In this document: positions 12,452 through 43,850 of the stretch, one piece after another | Position numbering within the stretch: the stretch's first letter is position 1 | Layout: every line of letters starts with the position of its first letter | DNA from: Garicola koreensis | GTDB taxonomy: Bacteria > Actinomycetota > Actinomycetes > Actinomycetales > Micrococcaceae | Length of the DNA stretch: 57,872 bases | Assembly: GCF_014195445.1 (NCBI RefSeq) | Contig: NZ_JACIBT010000007.1 | Coordinates: forward strand, 1-57,872 | Reading direction: 5' to 3' | Program-made: the position numbers and the translations under genes | Notes under the pieces: generated by a model | Databases searched by the model: none | What the model was told of the DNA's origin: nothing | What the model saw: the letters and a program-made list of their open reading frames with translations, nothing else

Positions 12452-12991
12452 CTAGCGGTCGATGAGTTGGCGCTTGGCGCTGATGATTCCGGTGTCGAAG
12501 CCGCCCAAGTGCAGGTTGCCGTGGAAGCGGCCGTGCTCAATCTTGATGCACCGGTTCTGCACCGCGTTCAGCCCCAGGTCGGTAGCCCGCTGCATGGCGT
12601 CTTCGTTCTTCAGGCCCAGCTGGGCCCACATGGTCTTCGCACCCACCGCAGCGGCATCCTCGGCCACGGCCGGCAGGTCGGCCGGCTTGCGGAAGGCCAC
12701 CACAATATCGGGCACCTCCGGAAGGTCCTGCAGCGAGGCGTAGCCGGGCCGGCCCAGCACGGTCTTGCCCACCAGGCCCGGGTTGACCCAGTAGAGCCGG
12801 TAGCTGGAGTCGGAGTTCAGATAGGTGCCCACAAAGTAGCTGGACCGGGAGGGCTTATCGCTCATCCCGATGATCGCCACCGACTCAGCACTGCGCAGCA
12901 GCTGCAGGCGGCGGGCGGCACCCGGCTCCTCCCAGAGGCCGTGCGGATGCTCAGCGCTCGTGGTTGTGCTGGTGGTCGGCGTCGCGCTCAT
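12452..12991 (-). CDS. CoA-binding (Rossmann-fold) protein
   Basis: This 179-residue CoA_binding_2 protein (YccU-like) has an Ala/Thr/Ser-rich N-terminal tail and then the Rossmann start SVAIIGMSDKPSRSS, the VNPGLVGKTVLG turn and the conserved WAQLGLKNEDA block, ending with NRCIKIEH. Family members bind CoA or nucleotides; their reaction is not established. The start codon overlaps the metY stop by four bases, so it belongs to the acsA-metY operon and should share its SAM riboswitch. This context suggests a role linked to acyl-CoA or sulfur-amino-acid metabolism. Confidence 0.85.
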   Translation of the reverse strand: MSATPTTSTTTSAEHPHGLWEEPGAARRLQLLRSAESVAIIGMSDKPSRSSYFVGTYLNSDSSYRLYWVNPGLVGKTVLGRPGYASLQDLPEVPDIVVAFRKPADLPAVAEDAAAVGAKTMWAQLGLKNEDAMQRATDLGLNAVQNRCIKIEHGRFHGNLHLGGFDTGIISAKRQLIDR

Positions 12992-14289
12992 TTTGAGTCT
13001 CCTTTGGTCGCAGCCTCCAGGGCCTGGTCCAGGTCCCAGATAATATCGTCAACGTCTTCTAGGCCCACAGAAATCCTGACCAGGTCCTCGCCGATTCCGG
13101 CGGCCTGAAGCTGCGCGGCGTTCAGCTGCTGGTGGGTGGTGGACCCCGGGTGCAGGATCAGGGTGCGGGCGTCGCCCACATTGGCTAAGTGGCTGGCCAG
13201 CTGCAGCGACTCAATGAAGGTGGCCCCATTTTCACGTCCGCCGGCGATGCCGAAGCTGAACACCGAGCTGACGCCGTCTGGCAGCAGCTCCTTAGCACGC
13301 TCGTGGTGCGGGTGGCTGGGCAGCCCGGCAAAGTTGACGTAGCTGACCCGATCATCGGTGTCCAGCCATTCGGCGATGCGCTGCGCGTTGATGGTGTGCT
13401 CGGCCATGCGTTGGGGCAGGGTTTCCACCCCCTGGATCAGCTGGAAGGCCGCCTGCGGGGTGAGGCTGGGCCCGAAGTCGCGCAGCTGTTCGGCGCGGAT
13501 CTTGGTGAGGAAGCCGTACTCGCCGAAGTTGCCCCACCAGGAGAGTCCGCCGTAGGAGTCCACCGGCTCGGTCATCTGCGGGAACTTGCCGTTGGCCCAG
13601 TCGAAGGTGCCCGCCTCCACGATCGCCCCGCCCAGAGTGGTGCCGTGGCCGCCGAGGAACTTGGTCACCGAATGGGTGACGATGTCTGCGCCGTGCTCAA
13701 TGGGCCGCAGCAGATACGGGGTGGTCAGCGTGGAATCGACCACCAGCGGGATGCCGTGCTCATGGGCCACCTCAGCGATGCCGGGAAGATCCACGACGTC
13801 GGAGCTGGGGTTGGTGACCACCTCGGTGAAGATCAGCTTGGTGTTCTCCTGGAGCGCGGCTTTGAAATCAGCGGCCTCATCGGAGTCCACGAACGTGGTC
13901 TCAATGCCGAACCGGCGCAGAGAAACGTCCAGCTGGGTGACGGTGCCGCCGTAGAGCTTGGAGCTGGCCACAATGTGGTCACCCTGCTCGCACAGCGCTG
14001 CGAACACCAAGAACTCCGCGCTCATGCCCGAGGCGGTGGCCACTGCGCCGATGCCGCCCTCCAGCGAGGCTAGGCGCTCCTCCAACGCGGCCACAGTGGG
14101 GTTGCCGATGCGCGAGTAGATGTTGCCGTACTTCTGCAGGGCGAACAGGTTGGCGGCGTCGCCGGTGTCCTTGAACACGAACGACGTCGACTGGTGGATC
14201 GGCACCGCCCGGGAGCCGTGGATGGCATCGGGCACCGTGCCGGCGTGCAGGGCGCGGGTGCGGAACCCGAACTGGCGGTCACTGGTCAT
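12988..14289 (-). CDS. metY: O-acetylhomoserine sulfhydrylase (aminocarboxypropyltransferase)
   Basis: This 433-residue PLP enzyme of the Cys/Met-metabolism family makes homocysteine and acetate from O-acetylhomoserine and sulfide (or methionine from methanethiol). The family opening TRALHAG, the SRIGNPT motif and the PLP lysine in THSVTKFLGG (Lys210) are present, and the inserted segment typical of MetY (around GENGATFIESLQLASHLAN) is kept, which separates it from MetB/MetC. It lies 16 bases after acsA and overlaps the CoA-binding gene, so SAM control of the acsA leader should extend to it through the operon. This is direct support for reading the leader as a SAM sensor. Confidence 0.93.
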   Translation of the reverse strand: MTSDRQFGFRTRALHAGTVPDAIHGSRAVPIHQSTSFVFKDTGDAANLFALQKYGNIYSRIGNPTVAALEERLASLEGGIGAVATASGMSAEFLVFAALCEQGDHIVASSKLYGGTVTQLDVSLRRFGIETTFVDSDEAADFKAALQENTKLIFTEVVTNPSSDVVDLPGIAEVAHEHGIPLVVDSTLTTPYLLRPIEHGADIVTHSVTKFLGGHGTTLGGAIVEAGTFDWANGKFPQMTEPVDSYGGLSWWGNFGEYGFLTKIRAEQLRDFGPSLTPQAAFQLIQGVETLPQRMAEHTINAQRIAEWLDTDDRVSYVNFAGLPSHPHHERAKELLPDGVSSVFSFGIAGGRENGATFIESLQLASHLANVGDARTLILHPGSTTHQQLNAAQLQAAGIGEDLVRISVGLEDVDDIIWDLDQALEAATKGDSK

Positions 14290-16426: not shown

Positions 16427-16437
16427 CGGTGAGCAAA

Positions 16438-16534
16438 CCCTCCCATCGGTTCTGGCGTTAGCACCTTGTCCCACGGGGTGAGGGGTGGTTGCTGCGGCGT
16501 CGTCGAGCCAGATCTCTCAGCCGCTCCGGATGGA
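16438..16534 (-). ncRNA. SAM-I (S-box)-like riboswitch, copy 1, before acsA-metY
   Basis: Read on the minus strand: P1 UCCAUC (16534-16529) with GAUGGG (16447-16442); P2 GCGGC/GCCGC with a UGA...GACGA kink-turn and a GAG/CUC inner helix; loop AUCUGG; the core GCAACC...GGUGC (P3); then UAACGCCAG, whose CCAG pairs with the loop CUGG. No P4 helix lies between CCAG and P1. P1 runs into the GGGAGGG Shine-Dalgarno (16444-16438), about 12 bases before the acsA ATG. SAM is the expected ligand; translational control is inferred. Confidence 0.88.
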
Positions 16535-16544
16535 TACAGCTACC

Positions 16545-16574
16545 AGCCTAAGGCGTCGAAGGACGCGGCACCAA
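16545..16574 (-). promoter_or_regulatory. promoter candidate for the acsA-metY operon
   Basis: On the minus strand, TTGGTG (16574-16569), an 18-base spacer and TAGGCT (16550-16545) would start transcription a few bases before the aptamer P1. Both boxes are weak; position is the main argument. Confidence 0.3.
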
Positions 16575-16604
16575 GCTGTGTTGCGGATTGTGAGGTTTCT
16601 GGGG

Positions 16605-17120
16605 TCAGTCCAGGATCGGCAGCCGCTTGAAGGTGCTGTTGTGGAAAACCAGGCCGGGTTTGGTCTGGTCAGCCCCCAGGTCCAGAATCTCCAGGACGAC
16701 GACGTCGTGGTCGCCGGCGGTGAACTGGTTGTAGATCCGGGTCTTCAGCCACATCGGAGTGGCCCCCAGGGTCAGGGCGCCGTCGTCGTCGGTGCTGTAG
16801 TCCACGCCGGTGAAACGGTTGGCGCGGTCCTTCGATGCGATCTGACGGCACAGGCCCTCATGGTCGGCGCCGATCACCGAGACCCCCAGGTGGGAGGCCG
16901 CCTCGCGCAGCCGCGGCCAGGTGTTGGAGGTGTGCTGCACCGCGACCGTCGCCAGCGGCGGATCCAGTGAAACGCCGGCGGTGAAGGTGGAGGCGACCAA
17001 GGCTTCGGGGGCGCCGTTGATCTCGGCACCGATGGCCACCACCCCCTGGGGGAACTGGGCGAAGGCCTGGCGGAGGTCCAGGGCGGTGACTGCTGCGGCC
17101 GGTGCGGGGGATAAGCTCAT
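16605..17120 (-). CDS. flavin reductase (FMN/FAD:NAD(P)H oxidoreductase)
   Basis: This 171-residue flavin reductase domain protein has the FMN-binding stretch VASTFTAGVSLDPPL and the conserved GDHDVVVLEI block; the length is typical. It would supply reduced FMN by diffusion to two-component monooxygenases. The island next door encodes four candidate partners (two DszC/SfnB-type, two NtaA/DmoA-type), so this is probably their shared reductase. The ATG at 17120 follows a riboswitch-embedded GGAG by 9 bases; the frame opens further upstream but would translate the aptamer. Confidence 0.88.
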   Translation of the reverse strand: MSLSPAPAAAVTALDLRQAFAQFPQGVVAIGAEINGAPEALVASTFTAGVSLDPPLATVAVQHTSNTWPRLREAASHLGVSVIGADHEGLCRQIASKDRANRFTGVDYSTDDDGALTLGATPMWLKTRIYNQFTAGDHDVVVLEILDLGADQTKPGLVFHNSTFKRLPILD

Positions 17121-17129
17121 ACGAAACGA

Positions 17130-17215
17130 CTCCCATCGATCCTGGCGGTAGCACCCGGCTGCATCCGGGTTGCTGCGGCGTCGCTGAGCCAGTTCTCTCG
17201 GCCGCTCGGGATAGG
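17130..17215 (-). ncRNA. SAM-I (S-box)-like riboswitch, copy 2, before flavin reductase
   Basis: Minus strand: P1 CCUAUC (17215-17210) with GAUGGG (17137-17132), which keeps pairing through a U-G change relative to the other copies. P2 is GCGGC/GCCGC, the inner helix GAG/CUC, the loop AACUGG. P3 is a strong ACCCGG/CCGGGU helix inside the GCAACC/GGUGC core, and GCCAG forms the pseudoknot strand. P4 is absent. GGAG (17133-17130) overlaps the end of P1 and lies 9 bases before the ATG. Confidence 0.9.
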
Positions 17216-17223
17216 ACCTCTCC

Positions 17224-17253
17224 ACTGTAGAAGCCCGGTCAGCCGGTGAGCAA
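17224..17253 (-). promoter_or_regulatory. promoter candidate for the flavin reductase gene
   Basis: Minus strand TTGCTC (17253-17248), an 18-base spacer and TACAGT (17229-17224) place the start a few bases upstream of riboswitch copy 2. The region 17254-17525 between the divergent promoters contains a short GC repeat (GAGTGGCGCGGG twice near 17410-17437) and nothing else I can identify. Confidence 0.4.
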
Positions 17254-17525
17254 AATCCGTGTCACATGGCGAGATCTTCGCCGCGAGACCTCAAGAGACA
17301 CTGCGGATCGTCACCGGCGGCAGCACGTGCGAGGAGAGCCCCGGCTGTGTTTCATCCGCCGCGCCTAAGGAGCCGCCGATGAAACAGGGACGGGGACTCT
17401 TGTGCGGGACGAGTGGCGCGGGGCGAGTGGCGCGGGTGGGACCGCGCAGCGCAGGTGCGGGCCCATTGCGTCGCAGTCGGTGCCACAGCCAATGTTGCTC
17501 CGGGTGACGTGGATGCAGCCGCGAT

Positions 17526-17554
17526 TTGACGCGCAGCGGCGAAACCCGCATAAG
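17526..17554 (+). promoter_or_regulatory. promoter of the ssu-like operon
   Basis: TTGACG (17526-17531), a 17-base spacer and CATAAG (17549-17554) give a good sigma-70-type match with a predicted start about 10 bases before riboswitch copy 3. Confidence 0.55.
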
Positions 17555-17570
17555 CTTGACCCTAGATTGA

Positions 17571-17655
17571 CCATCCAGAGCGACTGAGGGATCTGGCCCG
17601 ACGACGTCGCAGCAACCGGCCTGAGGCAAGGTGCTAACGCCAGAGTCGATGGGAG
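17571..17655 (+). ncRNA. SAM-I (S-box)-like riboswitch, copy 3, before ssuBAC
   Basis: P1 CCAUC (17571-17575) with GAUGG (17648-17652). P2 is GCGAC/GUCGC and the inner helix GGG/CCC, both covarying against copies 1, 2 and 5. Kink-turn UGA/GACGA, loop AUCUGG, P3 core GCAACC/GGUGC, then UAACGCCAG with the CCAG pseudoknot strand. Only four bases separate CCAG from P1, so P4 is absent. GGGAG (17651-17655) overlaps P1 and lies 9 bases before the ATG at 17665. Confidence 0.92.
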
Positions 17656-17664
17656 TGATTCACC

Positions 17665-18507
17665 ATGTCAGCTGCGCCCACCCTCGAGCGGTCCACCGCC
17701 GCAATTGAGGATCCGCAGCCGCAGGCTTCAGCCCCGAGGCTCGAGGCCCGGTCGCTGAGTGTCAGCTTCGACGCGGTCGGCCGAGCATTCGAGGCGGCCC
17801 CCGTGCTGCGCGATATCAGCTTCGACGTCACCCCCGGTGAGGTCGTGGCGATCCTCGGCGCATCCGGCTGCGGCAAGTCCACGCTGCTGCGCGCCGTCGG
17901 GGGCCTGGACACCGGAAACTCCGGACAGATCAGAATCGGGGGCAACCCGGTGACCGCCTATGACCCGCGCACTGCCGTCGGCTTCCAGGAGCCCCGACTG
18001 CTGCCGTGGCGCTCTGTGCGCAAGAACATTGAGCTGGGTCTGCCGCGCGAGCTGTCCAGGGCCGCAGGCGCCGCCCGCGTTGATGAGCTGCTGGAGCTGG
18101 TCGGTCTGGCCGACCGGGCAGAGCTGCGCCCCCGCGAGATCTCCGGGGGCATGGCCCAGCGCACATCCCTTGCCCGTGCCCTGGCGCGCCGCCCCGGAGT
18201 GCTGCTGCTGGACGAACCCTTCGGCGCCCTGGACGCGCTGACCCGGCTGAAGATGCAGGACCTGCTGCTGGAGGTCCACGCCCAGACCGGCACCACCGTG
18301 CTGCTGGTCACCCACGACGTCGACGAAGCCCTTCAGCTGGCCGACCGGATCCTGCTGCTGGGGGCCGAGGACTCCTCGACCCAGGCCGGGGCAACGGTCA
18401 AGCAGCTGCTCACGATTCCAGGGCGACGCCCCCGCGATCGCGGCTCGGCTGAGCTGGTGCGACTGCGCAGCCAGCTCTATGCCGGCCTCGGCGTCGACTC
18501 CCACTGA
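17665..18507 (+). CDS. ssuB: sulfonate/nitrate-type ABC transporter ATP-binding protein
   Basis: This 280-residue ATPase of the SsuB/TauB/NrtD family has Walker A GASGCGKS at 65-72, the signature ISGGMAQR at 159-166 and Walker B VLLLDEP at 179-185. The Gly-Phe-Gln-Glu Q-loop and RLLPWRSV segment are typical of this family. The first 30 residues are an Ala/Pro/Glu-rich extension. It directly follows a SAM riboswitch and is the first gene of ssuB-ssuA-ssuC, so it should power uptake of an organosulfur compound, most likely an alkanesulfonate; the exact ligand cannot be read. Confidence 0.9.
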   Translation: MSAAPTLERSTAAIEDPQPQASAPRLEARSLSVSFDAVGRAFEAAPVLRDISFDVTPGEVVAILGASGCGKSTLLRAVGGLDTGNSGQIRIGGNPVTAYDPRTAVGFQEPRLLPWRSVRKNIELGLPRELSRAAGAARVDELLELVGLADRAELRPREISGGMAQRTSLARALARRPGVLLLDEPFGALDALTRLKMQDLLLEVHAQTGTTVLLVTHDVDEALQLADRILLLGAEDSSTQAGATVKQLLTIPGRRPRDRGSAELVRLRSQLYAGLGVDSH

Positions 18508-18576
18508 CCCAGGATCCTGCAGCCGCGTTCCTACCGGCCTGCCCGATCCGCTCGCACCCTCTACGAAAGGTCTCCT

Positions 18577-19635
18577 ATGTCCCTTGCCGCCCATAAGAAG
18601 TCCACTGCCGCAATGGCGACTGTGGCTGCTGCCGCCCTGGTGGCCAGCACCGCCTGCAGTGCAGCCTCCGGCAGTGAAGAGCTGGAGACCCTGAACATCG
18701 ATTTCGCCACCTACAACCCGCTGTCCCTGGTGATACTGGAGAATGGATGGCTCGAAGAGGAGCTCGCAGATCAGGGCGTCGAGGTGGAGTGGACCCAGTC
18801 GCATGGCTCCAACCGGGCCAATGAGAACCTACGTGCTGGCAACATCGACGTCGGCTCCACTGCCGGATCGGCCGCGCTGCTCAACCGTGCAGTCGGGGCC
18901 GATACCCACACAATCCTGATCGAATCTCAGCCGGAGTGGTCTGCGATGGTGGTGGGCGAGGACTCCAGCATCGAGTCAGCTGAAGACCTCGAAGGCGCCA
19001 GCGTGGCCGCCACCTTGGCCACCGACCCCTTCTTCTTCTTTGCCCGCACCCTGGATGAACATGGGATCTCACTGGACGACGTCGAAGTCCAGAACCTGCA
19101 GCACGCCGACGGCCGACAGGCCCTGTCCACCGGCGAGGTCGACGCCTGGGCCGGGTTGGACCCGATCATGGCCAGCGCCGAGTTCGACGGCGCCGAACTG
19201 ATCTACCGCAACGTGGACTTCAACACCTACAGCGTGATCAACGCCACCGGCGACTTTCTGGACAACCACCCGGAGACCGCGCAGGTCGTCGTCGACGTCT
19301 ACGAACAGGCCCGCAAATGGGCGCAGGAGAACCCCGAGGAGACAGTGGACATTCTGGCCGACTACGCCGGTCTGGAGACTGAGGTCGCCGAACGGGTGCT
19401 GGATGAACGGGTGGACTTCGACATCGACCCGGTCCCCGGCGAGCAGCTGCGCTCCTCGATCGAACCCACCGGGCCCATCTTTGTGGACAACGGCGACGTC
19501 GACTCCCAGGAGGCGGTTGATGAGGCCATGGAGTCGCTGTTCCGCCCCGAATTCGCTGAAGACCGGCAGGCCACCGACGCCGAAGGCAGCGACGACGCCG
19601 CCGACGAGGCCAACATCAACCAGGACGAGGAATAA
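18577..19635 (+). CDS. ssuA: sulfonate-type ABC transporter substrate-binding lipoprotein
   Basis: This 352-residue extracellular binding protein of the SsuA/NrtA/ThiY superfamily has a Sec signal with a lipobox (ASTAC) near residue 27. The start of the mature domain is LNIDFATYNPLSLVI, and the segments SVAATLATDP and DAWAGLDPIMASA match the aliphatic-sulfonate binders. The C-terminal tail is very acidic (Asp/Glu/Ala). AAAGG at 18567-18571 sets the ATG. Its stop overlaps the permease start (TAATG). Substrate inferred as a sulfonate from the family and the SAM-responsive leader. Confidence 0.87.
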   Translation: MSLAAHKKSTAAMATVAAAALVASTACSAASGSEELETLNIDFATYNPLSLVILENGWLEEELADQGVEVEWTQSHGSNRANENLRAGNIDVGSTAGSAALLNRAVGADTHTILIESQPEWSAMVVGEDSSIESAEDLEGASVAATLATDPFFFFARTLDEHGISLDDVEVQNLQHADGRQALSTGEVDAWAGLDPIMASAEFDGAELIYRNVDFNTYSVINATGDFLDNHPETAQVVVDVYEQARKWAQENPEETVDILADYAGLETEVAERVLDERVDFDIDPVPGEQLRSSIEPTGPIFVDNGDVDSQEAVDEAMESLFRPEFAEDRQATDAEGSDDAADEANINQDEE

Positions 19636-20456
19636 TGAGCGCCCCAGCCCAGGACACAGCGGCACCAACCCAGCCTCCGACGACGGGGAAGAAGCCTGCC
19701 GGACTGCCCGGGGGCAAACTGCTGCTGGGCCTGATCGTCCCGGCGGCTGTGCTGCTGGCCTGGTGGCTGGTCACCGACGTGTTCGGGGTCTTCACCGCGA
19801 CCCAGCTGCCCGCACCGCAGGCGGTCCTGGAGGCCGGCCTCGGGCTGATGAGCTCCGGAGACCTCTGGGGGCATATGGGCATCTCCGTGCAGCGGGTGCT
19901 GCTGGGGTTCCTTGCCGGGTCCGCCGCCGGACTGCTGCTGGGCTCGCTGCTGGGCCTGTCTGGCCTCGCCGACCGGCTGCTCAACCCGACTGTAGGAGCC
20001 TTTCGGGCCGTACCCTCGCTGGCCTGGGTGCCGTTGATCCTGCTCTGGGTCGGCCTGGGTGAGGACGGCAAAGTCCTGCTGATCGCCATCGGCGCCTTCT
20101 TCCCAGTCTTCACCTCCATACACTCGGCCCTGCGTCATGTGGATCCGCACCTGGTCGAGGCCGGCCGAGCCTTCGGATTCCACGGTATCCGGCTGCTGAC
20201 AACCGTCCAGCTGCCCGCTGTGGTGCCCCCGGTCTTCTCCGGACTGCGCCTCGCCCTGGCCCAAGCCTGGTTATTCCTGGTCGCCTCCGAACTGCTCGGC
20301 GCCTCCGAGGGCCTCGGATTCCTTCTGACCGAATCCCAGAACAATGGGCGCACCGACCGGCTGCTGCTGGCGATCGTGATGCTCGCACTGCTGGGCAAAC
20401 TCACGGACGCGCTGCTCGGCATGCTCGAACGAAAAGCCCTCAAAACCTGGGCGTAA
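19635..20456 (+). CDS. ssuC: sulfonate-type ABC transporter permease
   Basis: This 273-residue BPD_transp_1 permease has about six membrane helices and the EAA loop around EAGRAFGFHGIRLLTTVQLPAVVP, characteristic of SsuC/TauC. It overlaps ssuA by one base. The stop codon is only 12 bases before riboswitch copy 4, so downstream genes may be reached by readthrough of the same transcript. Confidence 0.88.
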   Translation: MSAPAQDTAAPTQPPTTGKKPAGLPGGKLLLGLIVPAAVLLAWWLVTDVFGVFTATQLPAPQAVLEAGLGLMSSGDLWGHMGISVQRVLLGFLAGSAAGLLLGSLLGLSGLADRLLNPTVGAFRAVPSLAWVPLILLWVGLGEDGKVLLIAIGAFFPVFTSIHSALRHVDPHLVEAGRAFGFHGIRLLTTVQLPAVVPPVFSGLRLALAQAWLFLVASELLGASEGLGFLLTESQNNGRTDRLLLAIVMLALLGKLTDALLGMLERKALKTWA

Positions 20457-20468
20457 CTGACCGACCAA

Positions 20469-20571
20469 CCATCCAGAGCGACTGAGGGACCTGGCCCGAC
20501 GACGTCGCAGCAACCAACCGAACAGGACAAACCTGCAGCGGGACAAGGTGCTAACGCCAGAGACGATGGAG
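20469..20571 (+). ncRNA. SAM-I (S-box)-like riboswitch, copy 4, inside the gene string
   Basis: P1 CCAUC (20469-20473) with GAUGG (20565-20569); P2 GCGAC/GUCGC with GGG/CCC inner helix; loop ACCUGG; core GCAACC...GGUGC with a longer P3 arm than the other copies; CCAG pseudoknot strand; no P4. GGAG (20568-20571) overlaps P1 and precedes the ATG at 20579 by 7 bases. It begins 12 bases after ssuC, leaving little room for a separate promoter outside the ssuC coding region. The sequence of its first 45 bases is almost identical to copy 3. Confidence 0.9.
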
Positions 20572-20578
20572 AAAATAC

Positions 20579-21793
20579 ATGGTATACAACTCAGCCGTAC
20601 CCGCGGCCCTGCTCACCGCTATCACCGCTGCCGGGGAGAACGCGCTCAACCGGGAACTGGAGCGCAGCCTGCCGCATGAGGAGATCCGCTCTCTAGTCGA
20701 GGCCGGAATCGGCAGGCTGCGAGTGCCAACAGAGTATGGCGGCCTGGGACTGAACTGGGTGGAGGCCACCGAAGTGCTCGTGGAGCTCGCCGCTCAGGAC
20801 AGCAATATTGTGCAGGCGCTGCGCGGGCACCTGGCCATTCAGGAGGATGCGATCTTTCGCCCGGATGACCAGGCCGCCGCCCAACACTGGCTGCATCGCC
20901 TGGCTGCCGGCCAGCTTGCCGGAAACGCGTGGACTGAACCGGGCACCGGCGGCTACCAGCGCTCCGGAACCGTGGTGACCTCCACCGAGAACGGACTGGT
21001 GGTCAACGGCACCAAGTACTACACCACCGGTTCCATTTTTGCCGATTGGCTGGATGTCACCGCCCGCGATGAGCAGGGCAACGAACTGGCCGTGCTCGTC
21101 GCCGGTGACCAGGCTGGGGTGCAGATCTCCGATGACTGGAGCGGGTTCGGTCAGCGCACCACGGGTTCAGGCACCACCACGTTGACCGATGCGGCTGTGG
21201 CCGATTACGAGTCTCGGCTGCTCACTGACCGGTTCCCCTACCAGACCGCGCTCTACCAGCATGTGCTGTTGGTTGTGCTGACCGGCATCGTCGAGGCCGC
21301 CGCCGGTGAGATCGCTGCGGCACTGTCCACGCGCAGCCGCACCTACAGCCACGCCAACACTGTGCAGCCGAGTACGGACCCCCAGCTGCTGCAGGCAGTA
21401 GGGGAAGTCGACGCCGTGGCCGCTCTAGCCCGCGCCCAGGTGCTGGAGACCGCCCGAACTTTGGACACCGCCTTCGCCGCACGTCACGCGGACCCCGCCG
21501 GACAGCTGCAGGCTGCCGAAGCCGCAGAACTGGCCACCGGACGCGCTCAAGTGGCTCTGCACCGACCGGTGCTGGAAGCAGTATCGAGAACCTTTGACGC
21601 ACTGGGCGCCTCCGGCGTAGACGCCGGACGTGGGCTGGATCGGCACTGGCGCAACGCGCGCACTGTCACCAGCCACAACCCGTGGGTGTACAAGGCCCGC
21701 ATTGCCGGCGACCACCGGGTCAACGGCACTGCGCCGGTGCGGCTGTGGAGTGTAGGAGTGCCCGAGCCGGAGCTCTCCGCTGCCACCAGCTGA
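20579..21793 (+). CDS. acyl-CoA-dehydrogenase-fold FMN-dependent monooxygenase (SfnB/DszC-like)
   Basis: This 404-residue protein has the acyl-CoA dehydrogenase fold: an N-terminal helical domain (IGRLRVPTEYGGLGLNWVEA), a central beta domain (GNAWTEPGTGG, then NGTKYYTTGS) and a C-terminal four-helix bundle ending near RHWRNARTVTSHNPWVYK. The TGS and R-x-x-R-T-x-x-HNP features are those of the DszC/SfnB flavin monooxygenase branch rather than true dehydrogenases. The probable reaction is oxygenation of an organosulfur substrate with FMNH2 and O2. It is directly behind riboswitch copy 4 and 32 bases before a paralogue. Confidence 0.82.
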   Translation: MVYNSAVPAALLTAITAAGENALNRELERSLPHEEIRSLVEAGIGRLRVPTEYGGLGLNWVEATEVLVELAAQDSNIVQALRGHLAIQEDAIFRPDDQAAAQHWLHRLAAGQLAGNAWTEPGTGGYQRSGTVVTSTENGLVVNGTKYYTTGSIFADWLDVTARDEQGNELAVLVAGDQAGVQISDDWSGFGQRTTGSGTTTLTDAAVADYESRLLTDRFPYQTALYQHVLLVVLTGIVEAAAGEIAAALSTRSRTYSHANTVQPSTDPQLLQAVGEVDAVAALARAQVLETARTLDTAFAARHADPAGQLQAAEAAELATGRAQVALHRPVLEAVSRTFDALGASGVDAGRGLDRHWRNARTVTSHNPWVYKARIAGDHRVNGTAPVRLWSVGVPEPELSAATS

Positions 21794-21825
21794 ACCACCC
21801 CAGAACTCTGAGAAGGACACACGAG

Positions 21826-23058
21826 ATGACACAGACCACAACTGAAGCGGCACCCCGCTCGCACTGGGAGGATGGAGCCAGCCCCGCGGAACTCGCCCAC
21901 TGGTCCGGTATCGCCCAACAGGTCGCCGACCAGCTGGGCGCTGACGCTGTGGCTCGCGACCGGGCCAATGAGACTCCCTTCGCAGAGGCGCAGCTGCTCA
22001 AAGACTCCGGATTGGTCACCCTGCTAGTACCGAAACTGCACGGAGGAGGTGGCGGTCATTGGGCCTCCGCTTTGGCCGCAGTGCGCATTATCGCCAGTGC
22101 CGATGCCTCCATCGCCCAGCTGTTGGCTTACCACTACATCAATGAGGGCAACATCGTCTTCACCATTCCCGAGGAGGCAGACCGGCGCCGATGGTTTGAC
22201 GCCACCGTTTCCGGACGGTGGATCTGGGGGGATTCGGTCAACCCCACTGACCCAGACCTGACGCTGGTCCCCAATGAGCATGGTTGGGTGCTCAACGGTC
22301 GCAAACGGTACTCCACCGGCTCCGCCGTGGGAGACGCACTGCTGGTCAATGCCCGCATCACAGCTGGTGAGGACGAAGGGAAGATCCTCGCCTTCGTGCT
22401 TGATGAGAACCGCGACGGTGTGGAGTACCTCGACGATTGGGACTTTCTCGGTCAGCGGCTCTCTTCCTCGAACTCCGTGGTGTATCGCGATGTGCAAGTC
22501 GGCTGCGAGGATGTGCTGGGCCACCTGATCGATGAGCCCTACTCCACGCTGGTGACCGCCGGAATTCAGCTGGCCTTCGGCAACCTGTACCTGGGCATCG
22601 CCGAGGGGGCACTGGCCAAGGCTCGGGATCTGATCAATGCTCGGCCGAACGCCTGGTTCCTCTCTCCGGCGGAGAAGTATCGCCATGATCCATTCGTGCA
22701 GCGCCTGGTGGGGGACTTCAAAGCCCGTACCGCCGCCGTTGCCGCGCTGGCGGAGAAGGTCAACCGCAACTTCGAACACGTACTGACCCTTGGTCACGAT
22801 GTCACAGCTGAGGTCCGCGGCGAACTGGCTGTCGAGATCGCCGAGCTGAAAGTCATCTCCTCCGATGTGGCCACCCAGCTGACTCATCAGATCTTTGAAG
22901 CCACCGGCACCTCCTCGACCGCCTCCAAGCACGGCTTCGACCTGTACTGGCGCAATATTCGAACCCACTCGCTCCACGACCCGGTCGATTACAAGAAGTT
23001 GGAGGTCGGAGCCCACTACCTCAACGGCGAGCTGCAGCCGCTCTCCCTCTACACCTGA
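21826..23058 (+). CDS. second acyl-CoA-dehydrogenase-fold monooxygenase (SfnB/DszC-like)
   Basis: This 410-residue paralogue of the preceding protein has the same layout: VTLLVPKLHGGGGGHW in the N-terminal domain, NGRKRYSTGSAVGD in the beta domain and YWRNIRTHSLHDPVDYKK at the end. The ATG at 21826 follows AGAAGGA; an earlier in-frame start at 21682 would overlap the previous gene. The two may act on different substrates or form a heteromer. They are followed within 15 bases by an aldo/keto reductase, so one transcript is likely. Confidence 0.84.
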   Translation: MTQTTTEAAPRSHWEDGASPAELAHWSGIAQQVADQLGADAVARDRANETPFAEAQLLKDSGLVTLLVPKLHGGGGGHWASALAAVRIIASADASIAQLLAYHYINEGNIVFTIPEEADRRRWFDATVSGRWIWGDSVNPTDPDLTLVPNEHGWVLNGRKRYSTGSAVGDALLVNARITAGEDEGKILAFVLDENRDGVEYLDDWDFLGQRLSSSNSVVYRDVQVGCEDVLGHLIDEPYSTLVTAGIQLAFGNLYLGIAEGALAKARDLINARPNAWFLSPAEKYRHDPFVQRLVGDFKARTAAVAALAEKVNRNFEHVLTLGHDVTAEVRGELAVEIAELKVISSDVATQLTHQIFEATGTSSTASKHGFDLYWRNIRTHSLHDPVDYKKLEVGAHYLNGELQPLSLYT

Positions 23059-23073
23059 GAAAGGACCCGAATC

Positions 23074-24144
23074 ATGAGCTTCTCCGTCGACGCCTCCGCT
23101 TGGGGCTCCGAGACGCACACCCCCTACGCGGCAGCGGACTCTCGCTACTCGAACTTCACCTATCGACGGGTCGGGTTCAGCGGACTCGTGCTGCCGCCCA
23201 TTTCCTTGGGACTGTGGTGGAACTTCGGTGACGCGACCCCGTTTGCCGATCAGCGCACCATTATTCGGCATGCGTTCGACACTGGAATCACCCATTTCGA
23301 CCTTGCGAACAACTACGGCCCGCCTGCAGGTGCGGCCGAGGAGAACTTCGGCCGAGCGCTCGCCAAGGACCTGGCTCCGTACCGCAATGAGCTGATCATC
23401 TCTTCAAAAGCAGGGTGGGACCACTGGCGCGGCCCCTATGGAAACTACGGTTCGCGCAAGTACTTGCTGGCCAGCTTGGATGAGTCCCTGAAACGGCTGG
23501 GAACCGACTACGTCGACATCTTCTACTCTCACCGAGTGGACCCAGAGACACCGTTGGAAGAGACGATCGGGGCCCTGGACACTGCAGTGCGCTCCGGTAA
23601 GGCGCTGTATGCCGGCATCTCTTCCTACTCGGCCGAGCGCACCCGCGACGCCAAGCAGATCGCCGACTCGCTGGGCACGCCGCTGGTGATTCACCAGCCG
23701 GCCTACTCGCTGCTGAACCGGTGGGTCGAAGACGGGCTGCTGGAGACTCTGTCTGACACCGGTATGGGATCGATCGCCTTTACACCGTTGGCCCAGGGAC
23801 TGCTGACCAGTAAGTACCTCGATGACCCCGACGCCAGGCCCTCGGGTAAACGCAGTTCTCTGCTGAACCGCCACCTCAGCGATGAGAATCTGTCCCGGCT
23901 GCGGCAGCTCAACGAAGTCGCCGACCGTCGAGACCAGAGCCTGGCACAGCTGGCTATCGCCTGGCTGCTGCGCGATGGCGGGGCCACCTCAGTGCTGATG
24001 GGCGCATCGTCGACTGCCCAGCTGGATGAGAACCTCGCCGCGGTCACCAACACCTCATTCACCGCTGAGGAACTGACTGAGATTGACCAGATCACCCGAG
24101 GTGAATCCGGTATCAACATCTGGTCCGTCTCATCCGATCTCTAG
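23074..24144 (+). CDS. aldo/keto reductase (YghZ/MgrA-like)
   Basis: This 356-residue NADPH-dependent aldo/keto reductase has the N-terminal GFSGLVLPPISLGLWWNFG, the catalytic Asp/Tyr region (FDLANNYGPPAGAAEENFG), Lys in SSKAGWDHWRGPYG and the YVDIFYSHRVDPETPLEET segment characteristic of the YghZ (glyceraldehyde-3-phosphate/methylglyoxal reductase) subgroup. AAAGGA precedes the ATG. In this operon it could reduce the aldehyde left when a monooxygenase cleaves a C-S bond; that is inference from position. A general detoxification enzyme is the alternative. Confidence 0.88.
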   Translation: MSFSVDASAWGSETHTPYAAADSRYSNFTYRRVGFSGLVLPPISLGLWWNFGDATPFADQRTIIRHAFDTGITHFDLANNYGPPAGAAEENFGRALAKDLAPYRNELIISSKAGWDHWRGPYGNYGSRKYLLASLDESLKRLGTDYVDIFYSHRVDPETPLEETIGALDTAVRSGKALYAGISSYSAERTRDAKQIADSLGTPLVIHQPAYSLLNRWVEDGLLETLSDTGMGSIAFTPLAQGLLTSKYLDDPDARPSGKRSSLLNRHLSDENLSRLRQLNEVADRRDQSLAQLAIAWLLRDGGATSVLMGASSTAQLDENLAAVTNTSFTAEELTEIDQITRGESGINIWSVSSDL

Positions 24145-24181
24145 ACCACCCGACACCGAGCTCACCGGAGAATACCTGCAC

Positions 24182-25618
24182 ATGCCGCCCAAACCCCTGA
24201 TACTGTCGGCCTTTCTGATGAACACCACCAGCCACATCATCGGTGGTGCCTGGCGTCGTGACGAGGCCCAGCAGCACCGTTTCAACCAGCTGCCGCACTG
24301 GGTATCACTGGTGAAGACGTTGGAGAACGAAGGCTTCGACATCGCTTTCTTCGCTGATGTGGTGGGTCTCTACGGCGATCACGAGGGCGGCTGGGCCTCC
24401 CATGTCCGCAAAGGTCTGCAGATCCCCTCCAACGACCCGCTGGTGCTCATCTCCGCCCTGGCCGCCGTCACCGACCGGATCGGGCTGGCTCTGACCTCAT
24501 CTGTGGTTCAGGCTCATCCCTTCACCTTCGCCCGCCAGCTCTCTACTCTGGACCACCTCTCCGGGGGTCGCGTGGGTTGGAACGTCGTCACCACGGCTCA
24601 GGAGAACGCCCACCGCAACTATGGTGCCGATGAACTGGCCCGCCACTCTGAGCGCTACTCCTGGGCAGAGGAATACCTGGAGGTCTGCTACAAACTGTGG
24701 GAGGGCTCCTGGAGCGACCAGGCGCTGAGAGTGGACAAAACCCATGAGGACGAGCGCGGCGGCGGGCTGCACGCGGATCCGGCGGGTGTCTCGAAAATCC
24801 ATCACGACGGCGACCGCTACCGCGTGGAGGGTCCACATCTGTCCTCCCCCTCGCCTCAGCGCACCCCCTATCTCTTCCAGGCCGGCTCCTCTGACCGCGG
24901 CCGCGACGTGGCTGCGGCCCACGCGGAGGCCACCTTCTCGATGGCGCCGAACCGAGAGATCGCCGCCGCGCACGCCGCTGACGTCAAGGAACGCACCAAA
25001 AAATTCGGGCGCCGCCCGGAGGATTTGGCGTTCATCCAGGGGCTCTCCTTCGTCATCGGCTCCACGGAGACTGAGGCCCGCGCCAAGGCCGAAGATCTGG
25101 ATACTTCCATCGACGACCATGCACTGATCGCCCACACAGCCGGCTCGCTGGGAGTGGACGTAGGCTACCTGCCTATCGATACACCGCTGGAGGACCTGGA
25201 GCACACCGAGGGGGCGCAGGGCCACTTGGCCGAGATCAAGAAGATGGCACCCAACGGCAAGGTCACACTGCGGGATTTAGCGCGCTTCCGGGCCCAGTCC
25301 ACCCGCGTGGTCGGCACCCCGGAACAGATCGCCGATGAGTTGGAGGCGTGGCAGGCGGCCGGAATCGACGGCGTCAACGTCATCAACTCCACCCTTCCGG
25401 GCAGCTACGTCGAGTTCATCGACCACGTGCTGCCAGTGCTGCGCGCCCGCGGTTTGGCCCGTCACCCCCAGGATGCAGCCCCCGGAACTCTGCGCGGGTC
25501 GCTCACCGGCGAAGACCGGCTGCCGGCCAGCCACCCGGCCGCCACCCACCGTGACGCCTTCACCCAGTACAGCGCCGCCGCCACAGAGACGCCAAAGGAG
25601 CTGCTGCACTCCCACTGA
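24182..25618 (+). CDS. LLM-class FMN-dependent monooxygenase (NtaA/SnaA/DszA/DmoA family)
   Basis: This 478-residue TIM-barrel flavin monooxygenase opens with LILSAFLMNTTSHIIGGAWR and carries the family blocks FFADVVGLYG, STLDHLSGGRVGWNVVTT and RTPYLFQAGSSDRGRDVAA. Relatives oxidise EDTA/NTA, dibenzothiophene sulfone or dimethyl sulfide using FMNH2 from a separate reductase. The ATG at 24182 is preferred (GGAG upstream, family start); the frame is open from 24083 but overlaps the reductase gene. It is the last gene of the copy-4 unit. Confidence 0.87.
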   Translation: MPPKPLILSAFLMNTTSHIIGGAWRRDEAQQHRFNQLPHWVSLVKTLENEGFDIAFFADVVGLYGDHEGGWASHVRKGLQIPSNDPLVLISALAAVTDRIGLALTSSVVQAHPFTFARQLSTLDHLSGGRVGWNVVTTAQENAHRNYGADELARHSERYSWAEEYLEVCYKLWEGSWSDQALRVDKTHEDERGGGLHADPAGVSKIHHDGDRYRVEGPHLSSPSPQRTPYLFQAGSSDRGRDVAAAHAEATFSMAPNREIAAAHAADVKERTKKFGRRPEDLAFIQGLSFVIGSTETEARAKAEDLDTSIDDHALIAHTAGSLGVDVGYLPIDTPLEDLEHTEGAQGHLAEIKKMAPNGKVTLRDLARFRAQSTRVVGTPEQIADELEAWQAAGIDGVNVINSTLPGSYVEFIDHVLPVLRARGLARHPQDAAPGTLRGSLTGEDRLPASHPAATHRDAFTQYSAAATETPKELLHSH

Positions 25619-25643
25619 ACTCTCACGAACCTCACTAGGCAAT

Positions 25644-25658
25644 CGAGGAACCTCCTCG
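25644..25658 (+). terminator. short hairpin after the first LLM gene
   Basis: CGAGGA (25644-25649), loop ACC, TCCTCG (25653-25658) is a perfect 6-bp stem in the 105-base gap before riboswitch copy 5. No U tract follows. It may mark a transcript end. Confidence 0.35.
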
Positions 25659-25723
25659 CAGCTGTCCTGCCCAAGCAGAACCTCGAACGACCAATGACAA
25701 CCGAATACCGCCAGAAGCACCTA

Positions 25724-25806
25724 TCCATCCCGAGCGGCCGAGAGATCTGGCTCACCGACGCCGCGGCAACCCGAGCGCCGGGTGCTACCGCCAGAATCGA
25801 TGGGAG
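25724..25806 (+). ncRNA. SAM-I (S-box)-like riboswitch, copy 5, before the CUT1-type transporter
   Basis: P1 UCCAUC (25724-25729) with GAUGGG (25799-25804); P2 GCGGC/GCCGC with GAG/CUC inner helix and kink-turn; loop AUCUGG; P3 ACCCG/CGGGU inside the GCAACC/GGUGC core; UACCGCCAG supplies the pseudoknot strand. There is no P4. GGAG (25803-25806) overlaps P1 and precedes the ATG at 25813 by 6 bases. In its helices it is closer to copies 1 and 2 than to copies 3 and 4. Confidence 0.9.
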
Positions 25807-25812
25807 AAACCT

Positions 25813-27171
25813 ATGAACACCCCGCCTCCTGCCCACCACAACCGGCGATCGATGGGCATCCAGATCACCTCCGCCGCCGCGGTCGTCACCCTGCTCGCCA
25901 CATCCTGCGGCTCCGCAGCGGCAGACAGCACCGAAGGTGACGCTTTCGCCGGTGACTATGAGGGCGAAAGCCTCGAGCTGCTGATGAACGTCTCCCATGA
26001 GGGAGCCGGCGAATGGCTCTCCGAGCGGTTCGAGGCTGAGACCGGGGTGGAGGTCACCATCACCACCGTCCCCTATGACGAGATTGCCTCCCAGCTGAGC
26101 CTAGACCAGCAGTCCGGCGCCAACGTCTACGACGTTGCCGCCCCCTGGTATGTCTCCCTGGGGGACCTTGCCGCCGACGGCAGCATCCAGCCGATCACCG
26201 AACTGGTCGAAAGCAGCGAGAACATCGACGTGGACGACTTCATCCCCAGTATCTGGGAGCCCTACTCGCATGTGGACGATGAGATCTACGGGCTCCCCTT
26301 CGACGGCGACATACACGCGCTGTTCTACAACACCGAGATTCTGGAGCGCAACGGCTTCGACGAACCTCCGACCACCTGGGACGAGTACGCCGAACAGGTG
26401 CAGACCATCACAGAGAACGAATCAGCAGACGGAGTCTATGGAGCCGCGGTCTTCGGGCAGCAGTCCCCGGTGATCCTCGGCGCCAGCTTCGCAAACCGTC
26501 TGGCCGGATTCGGCGGCGATTTCCTCAACGAAGACGGTCAGCCGGTCATCAACTCCGAGGAGGCTGTGGCCTCCCTGGAGGCGCTGGAAGAAGTCTGGGA
26601 CGACGCGCTGCCCACTCCCGCCGAGACCGACTTTGGAGCGGGAAACTCCGCCTGGTTCGCCGGCAACGTGGCATTCATCGAGAACTGGACAGACCTGGGC
26701 GTGCGCTCTCAGGCCCCGGCTAGCGGCTCCGAGGTGACCGACAGCTGGGGTGTGACCTACCTGCCGCGAGAGAACTCCGACGACGAGCCGCGCGCCTCCC
26801 TCGTGGCGGGCTACTCGTGGACTGTGACCGGCAACACCGACCAGACGCACCTGGCCCGGGAGTTTATCGAATGGGCCGCCAGCTCCGAGGTCAACGCCGA
26901 ACTGCTCACCGCTCTGCCGCCCACCGGAATCGACCCCAACCGCATCTCATCGCTGGAGGACGAGACCTACGGCACCAGCTTCCCCAAGCTCCAGGAGGTC
27001 AACTCCACCACGCTCAACGGGGCATTGGCCTGGCCTACCGGCCAGAACGCCACGGAGGCCGCGCAGATCCTTACTGATGAACTGGCCGCCTATCTCTCCG
27101 GACAGCGGTCCTCCGCCCAGGATGCCCTGGACACGGTGCAAGCCGAGTGGGAGCAGCTCCTTGGCGGCTGA
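25813..27171 (+). CDS. CUT1-type ABC transporter substrate-binding lipoprotein
   Basis: This 452-residue extracellular solute-binding protein of family 1 (MalE-like) has a signal peptide ending in the lipobox ATSC and a mature domain with VSHEGAGEWLSERFEAETGV, the YDVAAPWYVSLGDL strand and the pocket segment GLPFDGDIHALFYNTEILERNG. Such proteins usually bind sugars or polyols. A SAM riboswitch immediately upstream and flavin monooxygenases on both sides point to a sulfur-containing ligand, possibly a sulfo-sugar or thioglycoside. No sulfoquinovosidase or other glycosidase is nearby, so the ligand stays open. Confidence 0.86.
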   Translation: MNTPPPAHHNRRSMGIQITSAAAVVTLLATSCGSAAADSTEGDAFAGDYEGESLELLMNVSHEGAGEWLSERFEAETGVEVTITTVPYDEIASQLSLDQQSGANVYDVAAPWYVSLGDLAADGSIQPITELVESSENIDVDDFIPSIWEPYSHVDDEIYGLPFDGDIHALFYNTEILERNGFDEPPTTWDEYAEQVQTITENESADGVYGAAVFGQQSPVILGASFANRLAGFGGDFLNEDGQPVINSEEAVASLEALEEVWDDALPTPAETDFGAGNSAWFAGNVAFIENWTDLGVRSQAPASGSEVTDSWGVTYLPRENSDDEPRASLVAGYSWTVTGNTDQTHLAREFIEWAASSEVNAELLTALPPTGIDPNRISSLEDETYGTSFPKLQEVNSTTLNGALAWPTGQNATEAAQILTDELAAYLSGQRSSAQDALDTVQAEWEQLLGG

Positions 27172-43822: not shown

Positions 43823-43850
43823 GCGCAGCTGAACCCCAGGAGGTGGCCCT

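What the first reader, a model, noticed from the sequence alone, without database searches (positions are those of the whole stretch)
16438..25806. Five copies of a P4-less SAM-I-like riboswitch form one local regulon
At 16438-16534(-), 17130-17215(-), 17571-17655(+), 20469-20571(+) and 25724-25806(+) the same RNA appears: P1, a kink-turn P2, P3 with GCAACC/GGUGC, and a CUGG/CCAG loop pseudoknot. These are the ligand-binding hallmarks of the S-box (SAM-I). Canonical S-boxes have a P4 helix between the CCAG strand and P1; here only about 3-5 bases separate them in every copy. SAM-IV and SAM-I/IV classes also depart from SAM-I, but a kink-turn P2 combined with a missing P4 is not a form I can name. 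One SAM signal would co-regulate methionine synthesis, flavin reduction, two importers and four monooxygenases.
Basis: partly seen in the sequence, partly recalled or inferred. Interest (0 to 1): 0.85.

Follow-up and report, generated by a model that had tools for sequence, protein, structure and literature searches.

The report
P4-less SAM-I riboswitches guard sulfur scavenging
Five copies of an RNA element that matches the SAM-I riboswitch family but lacks its P4 helix sit in front of genes that resemble organic-sulfur scavenging genes, and each is predicted to shut off its gene when the cell has enough S-adenosylmethionine.

Summary
Observation confirmed. All five elements clear Rfam's SAM-I threshold (49-61 bits, cut-off 44.4); none matches SAM-IV or SAM-I/IV. 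All keep kink-turn, pseudoknot and SAM-contact bases, and none has a P4 helix: four nucleotides join CCAG to P1. Each precedes an apparent transcription unit of what looks like an organosulfur locus: acyl-CoA synthetase-MetY, flavin reductase, Ssu-like importer, DszC/SfnB- and DmoA-family monooxygenases, second importer. The P1 3' strand is itself the Shine-Dalgarno sequence, with ATG 14-21 nt from its start, so the likely mechanism is direct SAM-dependent blocking of translation, a mode already published for SAM-I. The form is not peculiar to this window: 48 of 49 sampled SAM-I elements of the family lack P4, against 2 of 42 parsed phylum elements; other actinobacteria and some Firmicutes, Fusobacteria and Spirochaetota records have it too. 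A base pair outside P1 survives and covaries (97 G-C, 10 U-A, none broken, 1 gap, of 108), so P4 is replaced by a 1-4 nt linker. SAM-IV occurs in 196 of 197 family genomes, both classes in 161. The open papers I could search gave no description of this form; two key papers and Rfam's seed were out of reach. SAM binding is untested.

The parts
16440..16536 (-). P4-less SAM-I aptamer A, in front of the acyl-CoA synthetase-like gene and MetY
   Evidence: RF00162 59.3 bits; R1 102.0 bits, but R1 was built from it; linker AACC
16424..16447 (-). P1 3' strand/Shine-Dalgarno GATGGGAGG to ATG (16424-16426), offset 21 nt
   Evidence: ATG is in frame with ORF 14306-16474(-)
17130..17217 (-). P4-less SAM-I aptamer B, in front of the flavin reductase gene
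   Evidence: RF00162 55.8 bits; linker GATC
17118..17137 (-). P1 3' strand/Shine-Dalgarno GATGGGAG to ATG (17118-17120), offset 17 nt
17568..17655 (+). P4-less SAM-I aptamer C, in front of the Ssu-like importer genes; divergent to copy B
   Evidence: RF00162 61.1 bits; pseudoknot 3' strand CCAG 17640-17643, cap pair G17639-C17647, linker AGT
17648..17667 (+). P1 3' strand/Shine-Dalgarno GATGGGAG to ATG (17665-17667), offset 17 nt
20466..20572 (+). P4-less SAM-I aptamer D, in front of the monooxygenase-like genes
   Evidence: RF00162 54.9 bits; linker AGAC
20565..20581 (+). P1 3' strand/Shine-Dalgarno GATGGAG to ATG (20579-20581), offset 14 nt
25722..25806 (+). P4-less SAM-I aptamer E, in front of the second importer and a DmoA-like gene
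   Evidence: RF00162 49.0 bits; linker AATC
25799..25815 (+). P1 3' strand/Shine-Dalgarno GATGGGAG to ATG (25813-25815), offset 14 nt
14306..16426 (-). acetate--CoA ligase-like enzyme, first gene behind copy A
   Evidence: NF001208 769 bits, cut-off 657; TIGR02188 723.9, just under its cut-off 724.95
12988..14289 (-). MetY-type O-acetylhomoserine sulfhydrylase
   Evidence: TIGR01326 590 bits, cut-off 495
16605..17120 (-). flavin reductase-like protein behind copy B
   Evidence: PF01613 82 bits, scanned as ORF 16605-17225
17665..18507 (+). SsuB-like ABC ATPase behind copy C
   Evidence: best NCBIfam match is the aliphatic sulfonate ATPase model, 213 bits, below its cut-off 395
18577..19635 (+). 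SsuA-family substrate-binding protein
   Evidence: TIGR01728 189.5 bits, cut-off 163.5
19635..20456 (+). SsuC-like permease
   Evidence: best match SsuC model, 171.5 bits, below its cut-off 347
20579..21793 (+). SfnB/DszC-like flavin monooxygenase 1 behind copy D
   Evidence: TIGR04022 231 bits, below cut-off 430.9; best PDB match methanesulfinate monooxygenase 6u76, 124 bits
21682..23058 (+). SfnB/DszC-like flavin monooxygenase 2 (ORF; true start probably further in)
   Evidence: TIGR04022 233 bits, DszC model 232 bits, both below cut-off; best PDB match 8cda 'probable monooxygenase' 261 bits, then 6u76 220 and DszC about 217
23074..24144 (+). aldo-keto reductase
   Evidence: PF00248 245 bits
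24083..25618 (+). NtaA/DmoA-family FMN monooxygenase 1 (ORF from TTG)
   Evidence: TIGR03860 462 bits, cut-off 279.7; best PDB match hexachlorobenzene oxidative dehalogenase 6lr1 414 bits, dimethyl-sulfide monooxygenase 336, so its substrate is open
25813..27171 (+). solute-binding protein of the second importer behind copy E; substrate unknown
   Evidence: PF01547 111.5 bits; NCBIfam matches are weak and sugar-type, best 42.9 bits
27077..29030 (+). two ABC permeases (27077-28138, 28131-29030)
   Evidence: PF00528 57.7 and 54.9 bits
29049..30491 (+). NtaA/DmoA-family FMN monooxygenase 2, nearest PDB match dimethyl-sulfide monooxygenase
   Evidence: TIGR03860 547 bits; 6ak1 537 bits

Best explanation
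The five elements are SAM-I-type aptamers without a P4 helix that likely bind S-adenosylmethionine and, when bound, would hide the ribosome-binding site that forms the 3' strand of their own P1 helix, so that the genes behind them, predicted to scavenge organic sulfur, would be translated only when SAM is low. Shown: the core, the missing P4, the conserved pocket bases, the Shine-Dalgarno position, and one element in front of each apparent transcription unit. Inferred: SAM as ligand, the OFF direction, translation as the level of control, the operon limits, and sulfur scavenging as the role of the genes. In the structural model, the base 5' of CCAG pairs with the base 5' of the P1 3' strand. 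That cap pair extends P1 and presents CCAG to the P2 loop across a linker of 1-4 nt (3 nt in all five window copies), where most other SAM-I RNAs I sampled have P4. The same genome has a separate SAM-IV element in front of another MetY gene.
For: RF00162 above gathering in 5 of 5. SAM-IV: no RF00634 match at E<=10 among the 150 of 640 candidates scored, and a SAM-IV model from ten family sequences (R2), run unfiltered over 16300-26000, gives nothing on the five copies and at most 9.7 bits anywhere, while it scores the held-out SAM-IV of the same genome 106.5 bits; R1 gives that SAM-IV only 8.7 bits. SAM-I/IV: no match at E<=0.001. SAM-contact residues 6-8, 11-12, 44-47, 57-59 and 87 (list from PMC6890682) are unchanged in 5 of 5, and the kink-turn G.A positions too. 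118 of 120 pair cells standard. P4-less in 48 of 49 sampled family elements against 2 of 42 parsed phylum elements. Cap pair G-C 97, U-A 10, no mismatch, 1 gap in 108 aligned matches. Start codon 14-21 nt from the first base of the P1 3' strand in 5 of 5, where predicted anti-SD pairing overlaps P1; 41 of 65 family sites with a usable ORF have a start codon 10-22 nt away. No terminator-like site near the copies. Nesterenkonia haasae has five copies in 20 kb, four of them in front of genes 72-77% identical to window genes, in a different order. Published: SAM-I with the RBS in the 3' side of P1; [quoted passage not shown]
Against: No binding, expression or transcript data. P1 has only 5-6 standard pairs (7 in copy B), and only 2-3 bases of the SD core lie inside P1, so sequestration may be partial. 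24 of 65 family sites have their start codon elsewhere, so this mode is not universal. MFE folds of the native leaders do not give the aptamer fold and are no more stable than shuffles (z -0.80 to 0.71). Most of the 108 aligned matches were chosen as P4-less, many through a pattern that fixes several core bases, so invariance there is partly by selection. The U-A and G-C cap pairs follow lineages, so the number of independent changes is small. A looser parse found cap positions that do not form a Watson-Crick pair: A-G in 1 of 13 phylum sites called P4-less, and A-A 1, G-U 1, U-G 3 of 105 named-scan sites; several of these are probably P4-bearing. The sulfur role of some genes is weak: one DmoA-family protein is nearest to a hexachlorobenzene dehalogenase and the second importer looks sugar-type.
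Confidence: 0.8

Rival explanations
1. The elements are ordinary SAM-I riboswitches: P4 is a dispensable, variable stem, and its absence has no functional meaning.
For: All five clear the RF00162 cut-off. The P4 stretch varies widely among P4-bearing elements (11-41 nt). P4-less elements turn up in several phyla. One same-genus element (L025) carries a 20-nt hairpin at the same site.
Against: P4 is missing in 48 of 49 sampled family elements but in 2 of 42 parsed phylum elements, so it is a lineage trait rather than scatter. Papers describe the pseudoknot acceptor as lying in helix P4 (PMC3651934, one passage; PMC4316175, passages).
Confidence: 0.45
2. They are degenerate SAM-IV elements that lost P5 and PK-2; SAM-IV also lacks P4 and is nearly universal in this family.
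For: SAM-IV lacks P4 (PMC6890682, passages) and is present in 196 of 197 family genomes.
Against: A family SAM-IV model run without filters gives no match on the five copies but 106.5 bits on the held-out SAM-IV of the same genome; RF00634 agrees (150 of 640 candidates scored). No pairing of the P3 loop with the 3' region beyond shuffles (132-493 of 500 shuffles do as well). Core sequence and kink-turn are SAM-I-like.
Confidence: 0.03
3. The RNA controls transcription (termination or Rho access) rather than, or as well as, translation.
For: Transcription attenuation dominates among Firmicutes riboswitches (PMC2258182, passages). Translational repression can expose Rho sites (established knowledge, recalled). 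Some P4-less elements elsewhere are followed by terminator-like hairpins with T runs (for example L083 and L200, by eye).
Against: No terminator-like site in the three stretches scanned, and the ATG begins 6-13 nt after the end of the aptamer in all five.
Confidence: 0.12
4. The ligand is not SAM but a related molecule such as S-adenosylhomocysteine.
For: The ligand was not tested.
Against: All bases listed as near SAM in SAM-I are unchanged in 5 of 5 copies, and most genes behind the elements fit a sulfur-sufficiency signal.
Confidence: 0.03

Closest known systems
SAM-I riboswitch (S-box, Rfam RF00162)
   Same: P1, kink-turned P2, P3, CUGG/CCAG pseudoknot, all listed SAM-contact bases; scores above the gathering threshold. 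[quoted passage not shown]
   Different: No P4 helix. CCAG is joined to P1 by a 1-4 nt linker plus a cap pair. The cap pair is G-C in the family's 48 P4-less elements and U-A in 38 of 40 P4-bearing ones; four P4-less actinobacterial loci of one other family (L200, L212, L240, L242) also have U-A.
SAM-IV riboswitch (RF00634)
   Same: Same clan; lacks P4 (PMC6890682); present in the same genome.
   Different: SAM-IV has P5 and a second pseudoknot and a 4-nt turn unlike the SAM-I kink-turn (PMC6890682), and different sequence; the five copies do not match SAM-IV models.
SAM-I/IV variant (RF01725)
   Same: Same clan and binding core.
   Different: SAM-I/IV lacks the internal loop of P2 (PMC2864571) and PK-1 but has a P4 (PMC6890682). 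The window copies show the reverse on each point and do not match the model.
Riboswitches with the ribosome-binding site inside the aptamer (TPP, preQ1 and SAM-I examples in PMC2258182)
   Same: Predicted to work the same way: ligand binding hides the SD without a separate expression platform.
   Different: Different fold from the preQ1 and TPP examples.

Membership tests
SAM-I (RF00162) | score above the curated gathering threshold | tested here: met
   49.0-61.1 bits against 44.4, 5 of 5
SAM-I (RF00162) | P1, P2a/P2b and P3 helices with junction bases | tested here: met
   118 of 120 pair cells standard including the pseudoknot
SAM-I (RF00162) | kink-turn G.A positions in P2 | tested here: met
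   G19, A20, G35, A36 equivalents kept in 5 of 5 (column mapping partly from recall)
SAM-I (RF00162) | P2 loop pseudoknot with the strand 3' of P3 | tested here: met
   CUGG/CCAG in 5 of 5; over A4, 11 sequences change both sides of one pseudoknot pair and 4 break it
SAM-I (RF00162) | SAM-contact bases | tested here: met
   all positions listed in PMC6890682 unchanged in 5 of 5
SAM-I (RF00162) | P4 helix between the pseudoknot strand and P1 | tested here: not met
   4 nt in 5 of 5, hence described as a P4-less variant, not filed as a canonical SAM-I
SAM-I (RF00162) | binds SAM | not testable with these tools
   needs in-line probing or ITC
SAM-IV (RF00634) | matches a SAM-IV model | tested here: not met
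   no match on the five copies with an unfiltered family SAM-IV model (held-out positive 106.5 bits); RF00634 none at E<=10, 150 of 640 candidates scored
SAM-IV (RF00634) | P5 and PK-2 | tested here: not met
   no pairing of the P3 loop with the 50 nt downstream beyond shuffles; ATG begins 6-13 nt after the aptamer
SAM-I/IV (RF01725) | score above threshold | tested here: not met
   no match at E<=0.001, 42 of 42 candidates scored
SAM-I/IV (RF01725) | P2 without internal loop | tested here: not met
   P2 has the kink-turn internal loop in 5 of 5

The most novel reading that the evidence does not exclude
P4-less SAM-I is a fourth architectural branch of the SAM clan: a minimal aptamer with kink-turn and PK-1 but neither P4 nor PK-2. 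In it a covarying cap pair on P1 takes over the job of P4 as platform for the pseudoknot, and the ribosome-binding site is part of the aptamer. In Actinomycetales this minimal form was multiplied across organosulfur scavenging loci while SAM-IV kept core methionine synthesis.
Probability: 0.45. Interest if true: 0.62.

Novelty: new variant of a known kind. Interest (0 to 1): 0.45.

Why it matters
In the published SAM-I structure the pseudoknot acceptor is described as lying in helix P4 (PMC3651934, passage). A natural, lineage-wide form without P4 asks directly whether P4 is needed for SAM binding, and offers an aptamer of 85-107 nt (the five window copies) that already contains the ribosome-binding site. 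It would also mark a sulfur-scavenging regulon in actinobacteria such as Arthrobacter, Kocuria and Nesterenkonia, and shows two SAM-clan classes living together in one genome, perhaps with different gene sets.

Tried and rejected
SAM-IV and SAM-I/IV membership: tested by model and rejected. A hidden P4: measured in every copy and rejected. Energy folding of single leaders: MFE structures miss the aptamer and no z-score is notable; not used as support. Consensus promoter scan: nothing found, uninformative in a GC-rich actinobacterium. The lax 'P4-less' pattern also catches elements whose P4 holds a GAT; a script moved 26 of 122 sites to 'P4+/ambiguous', some of them probably P4-less, and at least one of the other 96 (L099) shows a short P4-like hairpin by eye. 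In one search, 8 of 50 phylum elements could not be parsed by rule; by eye all eight carry a hairpin; they are outside the 42. Both samples come from the best 150 listed matches (the 29 or 30 best loci plus 20 picked by me for spread), so they are not random. R1 hit counts over the phylum (185 of 396) mix P4-less and P4-bearing elements and are not used as a P4-less count. One search stopped with an error after its tallies; one search replaced it for family and phylum, and repeats its other tallies. Of 65 ORF references, 62 were scanned (three short ones dropped).

Literature: ten searches (listings and abstract starts seen) gave no paper that I could tell describes a P4-less SAM-I or SAM-I control of dsz/sfn/ssu-type genes. 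Passages only were read in PMC2258182, PMC2864571, PMC6890682, PMC3766115, PMC3764141, PMC8250186, PMC4316175, PMC2211319, PMC5393176 and PMC3651934. Two central papers (Weinberg 2008, Trausch 2014) are not held, and Rfam's seed could not be inspected, so absence from print is not shown.
Full report
OBSERVATION. Five SAM-I (RF00162) elements lie at 16440-16536(-), 17130-17217(-), 17568-17655(+), 20466-20572(+) and 25722-25806(+), with 49.0-61.1 bits against a gathering score of 44.4. They are the only RF00162 matches at E<=0.001 in the host assembly, which is 2.25 Mb, 27 contigs and 80% complete (150 of 191 candidates scored). A P4-less pattern, written after seeing the copies, occurs exactly five times in the window and never in 100 shuffles. 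Aligned, the five copies form 118 of 120 standard pair cells over P1, P2a, P2b, P3 and the CUGG/CCAG pseudoknot; slid controls fall to 28-50%. Two pairs (one in P2a, one in P2b) change on both sides, a number that 314 of 500 column shuffles also reach; the covariation score is reached by 2 of 500.

P4 IS REALLY ABSENT. Between CCAG and the P1 3' strand there are 4 nt in every copy. To see whether this is a local oddity I measured the same stretch in RF00162 hits of other genomes, using the hit coordinates. In the window's own family 48 of 49 sampled elements have 4 or 5 nt (46 and 2); one (L025, same genus) has 20 nt forming a small hairpin. In a phylum sample of 50, 42 could be parsed: 40 have 11-41 nt and 2 have 3 nt. 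The remaining 8 show a hairpin by eye. Both samples come from the best 150 listed matches, and ranking by RF00162 favours P4-bearing elements in the phylum, so the phylum figure is not a frequency. A covariance model of the five copies (R1) scores the 30 family matches 65.7-96.3 bits and the 30 phylum matches 26.6-47.5; the lowest family score is L025, the one with a hairpin. R1 also reflects lineage sequence, not P4 alone.

HOW WIDESPREAD. RF00162 rings in 162 of 197 genomes of the family; only the 49 above were checked for P4. R1 rings in 128 of 297 genomes of the order, and the 150 matches listed score 80 bits or more. Of the eight new loci returned (L271-L278), the six that my regex caught are P4-less; two were not caught and not checked. 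There, 96 of 122 sites have no alternative hairpin followed by a second P1. The host is probably a Nesterenkonia: genome G178, tagged same genus, has a contig of the same length and the same riboswitch tail and gene start as a named N. haasae record.

STRUCTURE THAT REPLACES P4. In Rfam's alignment the base 5' of CCNG pairs with the base just 5' of the P1 3' strand (structure line). P4-bearing elements have U-A there in 38 of 40; family P4-less elements have G-C in 48 of 48. Over 108 R1 matches from 94 sources that I chose, one of them weak (L162:4068, 38 bits), this cap pair is G-C 97 times and U-A 10 times, never broken, with 1 gap. It was not part of model R1, so the alignment was not fitted to it. 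The linker between CCAG and the cap is 3 nt in 87, 2 in 17, 1 in 3 and 4 in 1. The rows that are not G-C are Firmicutes bins (L082, L083), Fusobacteria (L073, L142 twice, one of these the gapped row), a Spirochaetota bin (L098), two actinobacterial loci (L200, L212) and three records not named in the listing (L149, L178, L180), so independent changes are few. A looser parse gave some cap positions without a Watson-Crick pair: 1 of 13 phylum and 5 of 105 named-scan sites, four of those five being G-U type. My reading is that P1 is extended by the cap pair and the pseudoknot strand loops directly off it. SAM-contact positions given in PMC6890682 are unchanged in all five copies, as are the kink-turn G.A positions (numbering mapped partly from recall).

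WHICH CLASS. RF00634 (SAM-IV) gives no match on the five copies at E<=10 while the genome's own SAM-IV scores 103 bits, but that search scored 150 of 640 candidates. I therefore built a SAM-IV model from ten family sequences (R2) and ran it without filters: none of its 37 matches in 16300-26000 touches the five copies and the best anywhere is 9.7 bits, whereas the own-genome SAM-IV, held out of the model, scores 106.5. In return R1 gives that SAM-IV 8.7 bits. SAM-I/IV is not matched at E<=0.001. The P3 loop shows no pairing with the 3' region beyond shuffles, so there is no sign of PK-2. PMC6890682 (passages) states that SAM-IV lacks P4 but has PK-2 and P5, and that SAM-I/IV lacks PK-1 but has P4. 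The present form has PK-1 and kink-turn without P4 or PK-2, so it is a P4-less SAM-I.

MECHANISM. The P1 3' strand reads GATGGGAG (GATGGAGA in copy D) and is the only Shine-Dalgarno-like sequence between P1 and each start codon. ATG lies 21, 17, 17, 14 and 14 nt from its first base, and predicted pairing with the anti-SD (recalled sequence) overlaps P1 bases. No terminator-like site is near. [quoted passage not shown] So the mode is known; the aptamer form is the unusual part. Across the family 41 of 65 sites with a usable ORF have an ATG, GTG or TTG 10-22 nt away and 24 do not (three more sites had no ORF of 55 codons). Overlap of P1 with the SD core is only 2-3 bases, so repression may be incomplete.

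REGULON. Copy A precedes an acetate--CoA ligase-like gene and a MetY; B a flavin reductase; C an SsuB-like ATPase, SsuA-family binding protein and SsuC-like permease; D two SfnB/DszC-like monooxygenases, an aldo-keto reductase and a DmoA-family monooxygenase; E a second importer and a DmoA-like protein. Several names rest on best matches below the curated cut-off. Two points weaken the sulfur reading: the first DmoA-family protein is nearest to a hexachlorobenzene dehalogenase, and the second importer's binding protein looks sugar-type. N. haasae carries five copies in 20 kb. Four precede genes 72-77% identical to window genes (SsuB, DmoA-family 1, DszC-like 1, flavin reductase) in a different order, and the fifth precedes another ABC ATPase; there the synthetase gene follows the flavin reductase without a copy of its own. 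Six further relatives' regions (five genomes of other genera and one of the same genus) show two to five copies within 10-20 kb near homologues of these genes. First genes behind 62 family elements most often match ABC ATPase (17), luciferase-like monooxygenase (15), acyl-CoA-dehydrogenase-like (7), acyl-CoA synthetase (6) and SBP_bac_5 (5) families; 14 match the MetN model and 14 the NtaA/DmoA model at E<=1e-30, but MetN is one of many ABC models hit.

TWO SAM CLASSES TOGETHER. In the same 197 genomes SAM-IV is found in 196 and RF00162 in 162; the one genome without SAM-IV (G139) has RF00162, so both occur in 161. In the own genome and the ten best-scoring SAM-IV loci the longest nearby ORF starts 38-89 nt downstream; three of these eleven were scanned and are MetY, the others start with similar sequence. 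The own-genome MetY behind SAM-IV is 49% identical to the window's MetY behind copy A. A division of labour (SAM-IV on core methionine synthesis, P4-less SAM-I on scavenging and uptake) is suggested but rests on the best-scoring loci only, and MetY is under both classes here.

VERDICT. A real, well-supported, P4-less variant of SAM-I, common in actinobacteria, probably working by a known mode. I did not find it described in the open papers searched, but two central papers and the Rfam seed were out of reach. The ligand, the direction of control and the role of the genes are inferred.

Noticed in passing
window 43398-48757 and 52511-57872: A 5.4-kb direct repeat of 99.8% identity, 9.1 kb apart, holding Mrp-type antiporter-like genes; the second copy ends at the end of the contig, so a tandem duplication or an assembly artefact.
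   Followed up: partly
window 51987-52110(-): TPP riboswitch (55.2 bits, cut-off 54.3) in front of what looks like an ECF-type transporter (ABC_cobalt permease, double ABC ATPase with a CbiQ domain).
   Followed up: partly
L006, G000:C4:16488-16604(-): A true SAM-IV riboswitch (103 bits) in the same genome in front of a second MetY, showing two SAM-clan classes in one cell.
   Followed up: yes
L025 (G165:C1:133294-133404): One same-genus element has a small hairpin at the P4 site, while another element of the same genome is only 90 nt long and may lack it.
   Followed up: partly
order search, genome G655: A single genome has 13 matches to the P4-less model; which genes they control was not looked at.
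   Followed up: no
L083, L082, L170, L178 and similar: P4-less SAM-I elements in Firmicutes bins and unnamed records are followed by terminator-like hairpins with T runs by eye, so the P4-less aptamer is probably not tied to translational control.
   Followed up: no
loci L214-L218 (other genomes): Divergently transcribed genes each with their own P4-less element about 330-360 bp apart, like copies B and C in the window.
   Followed up: no
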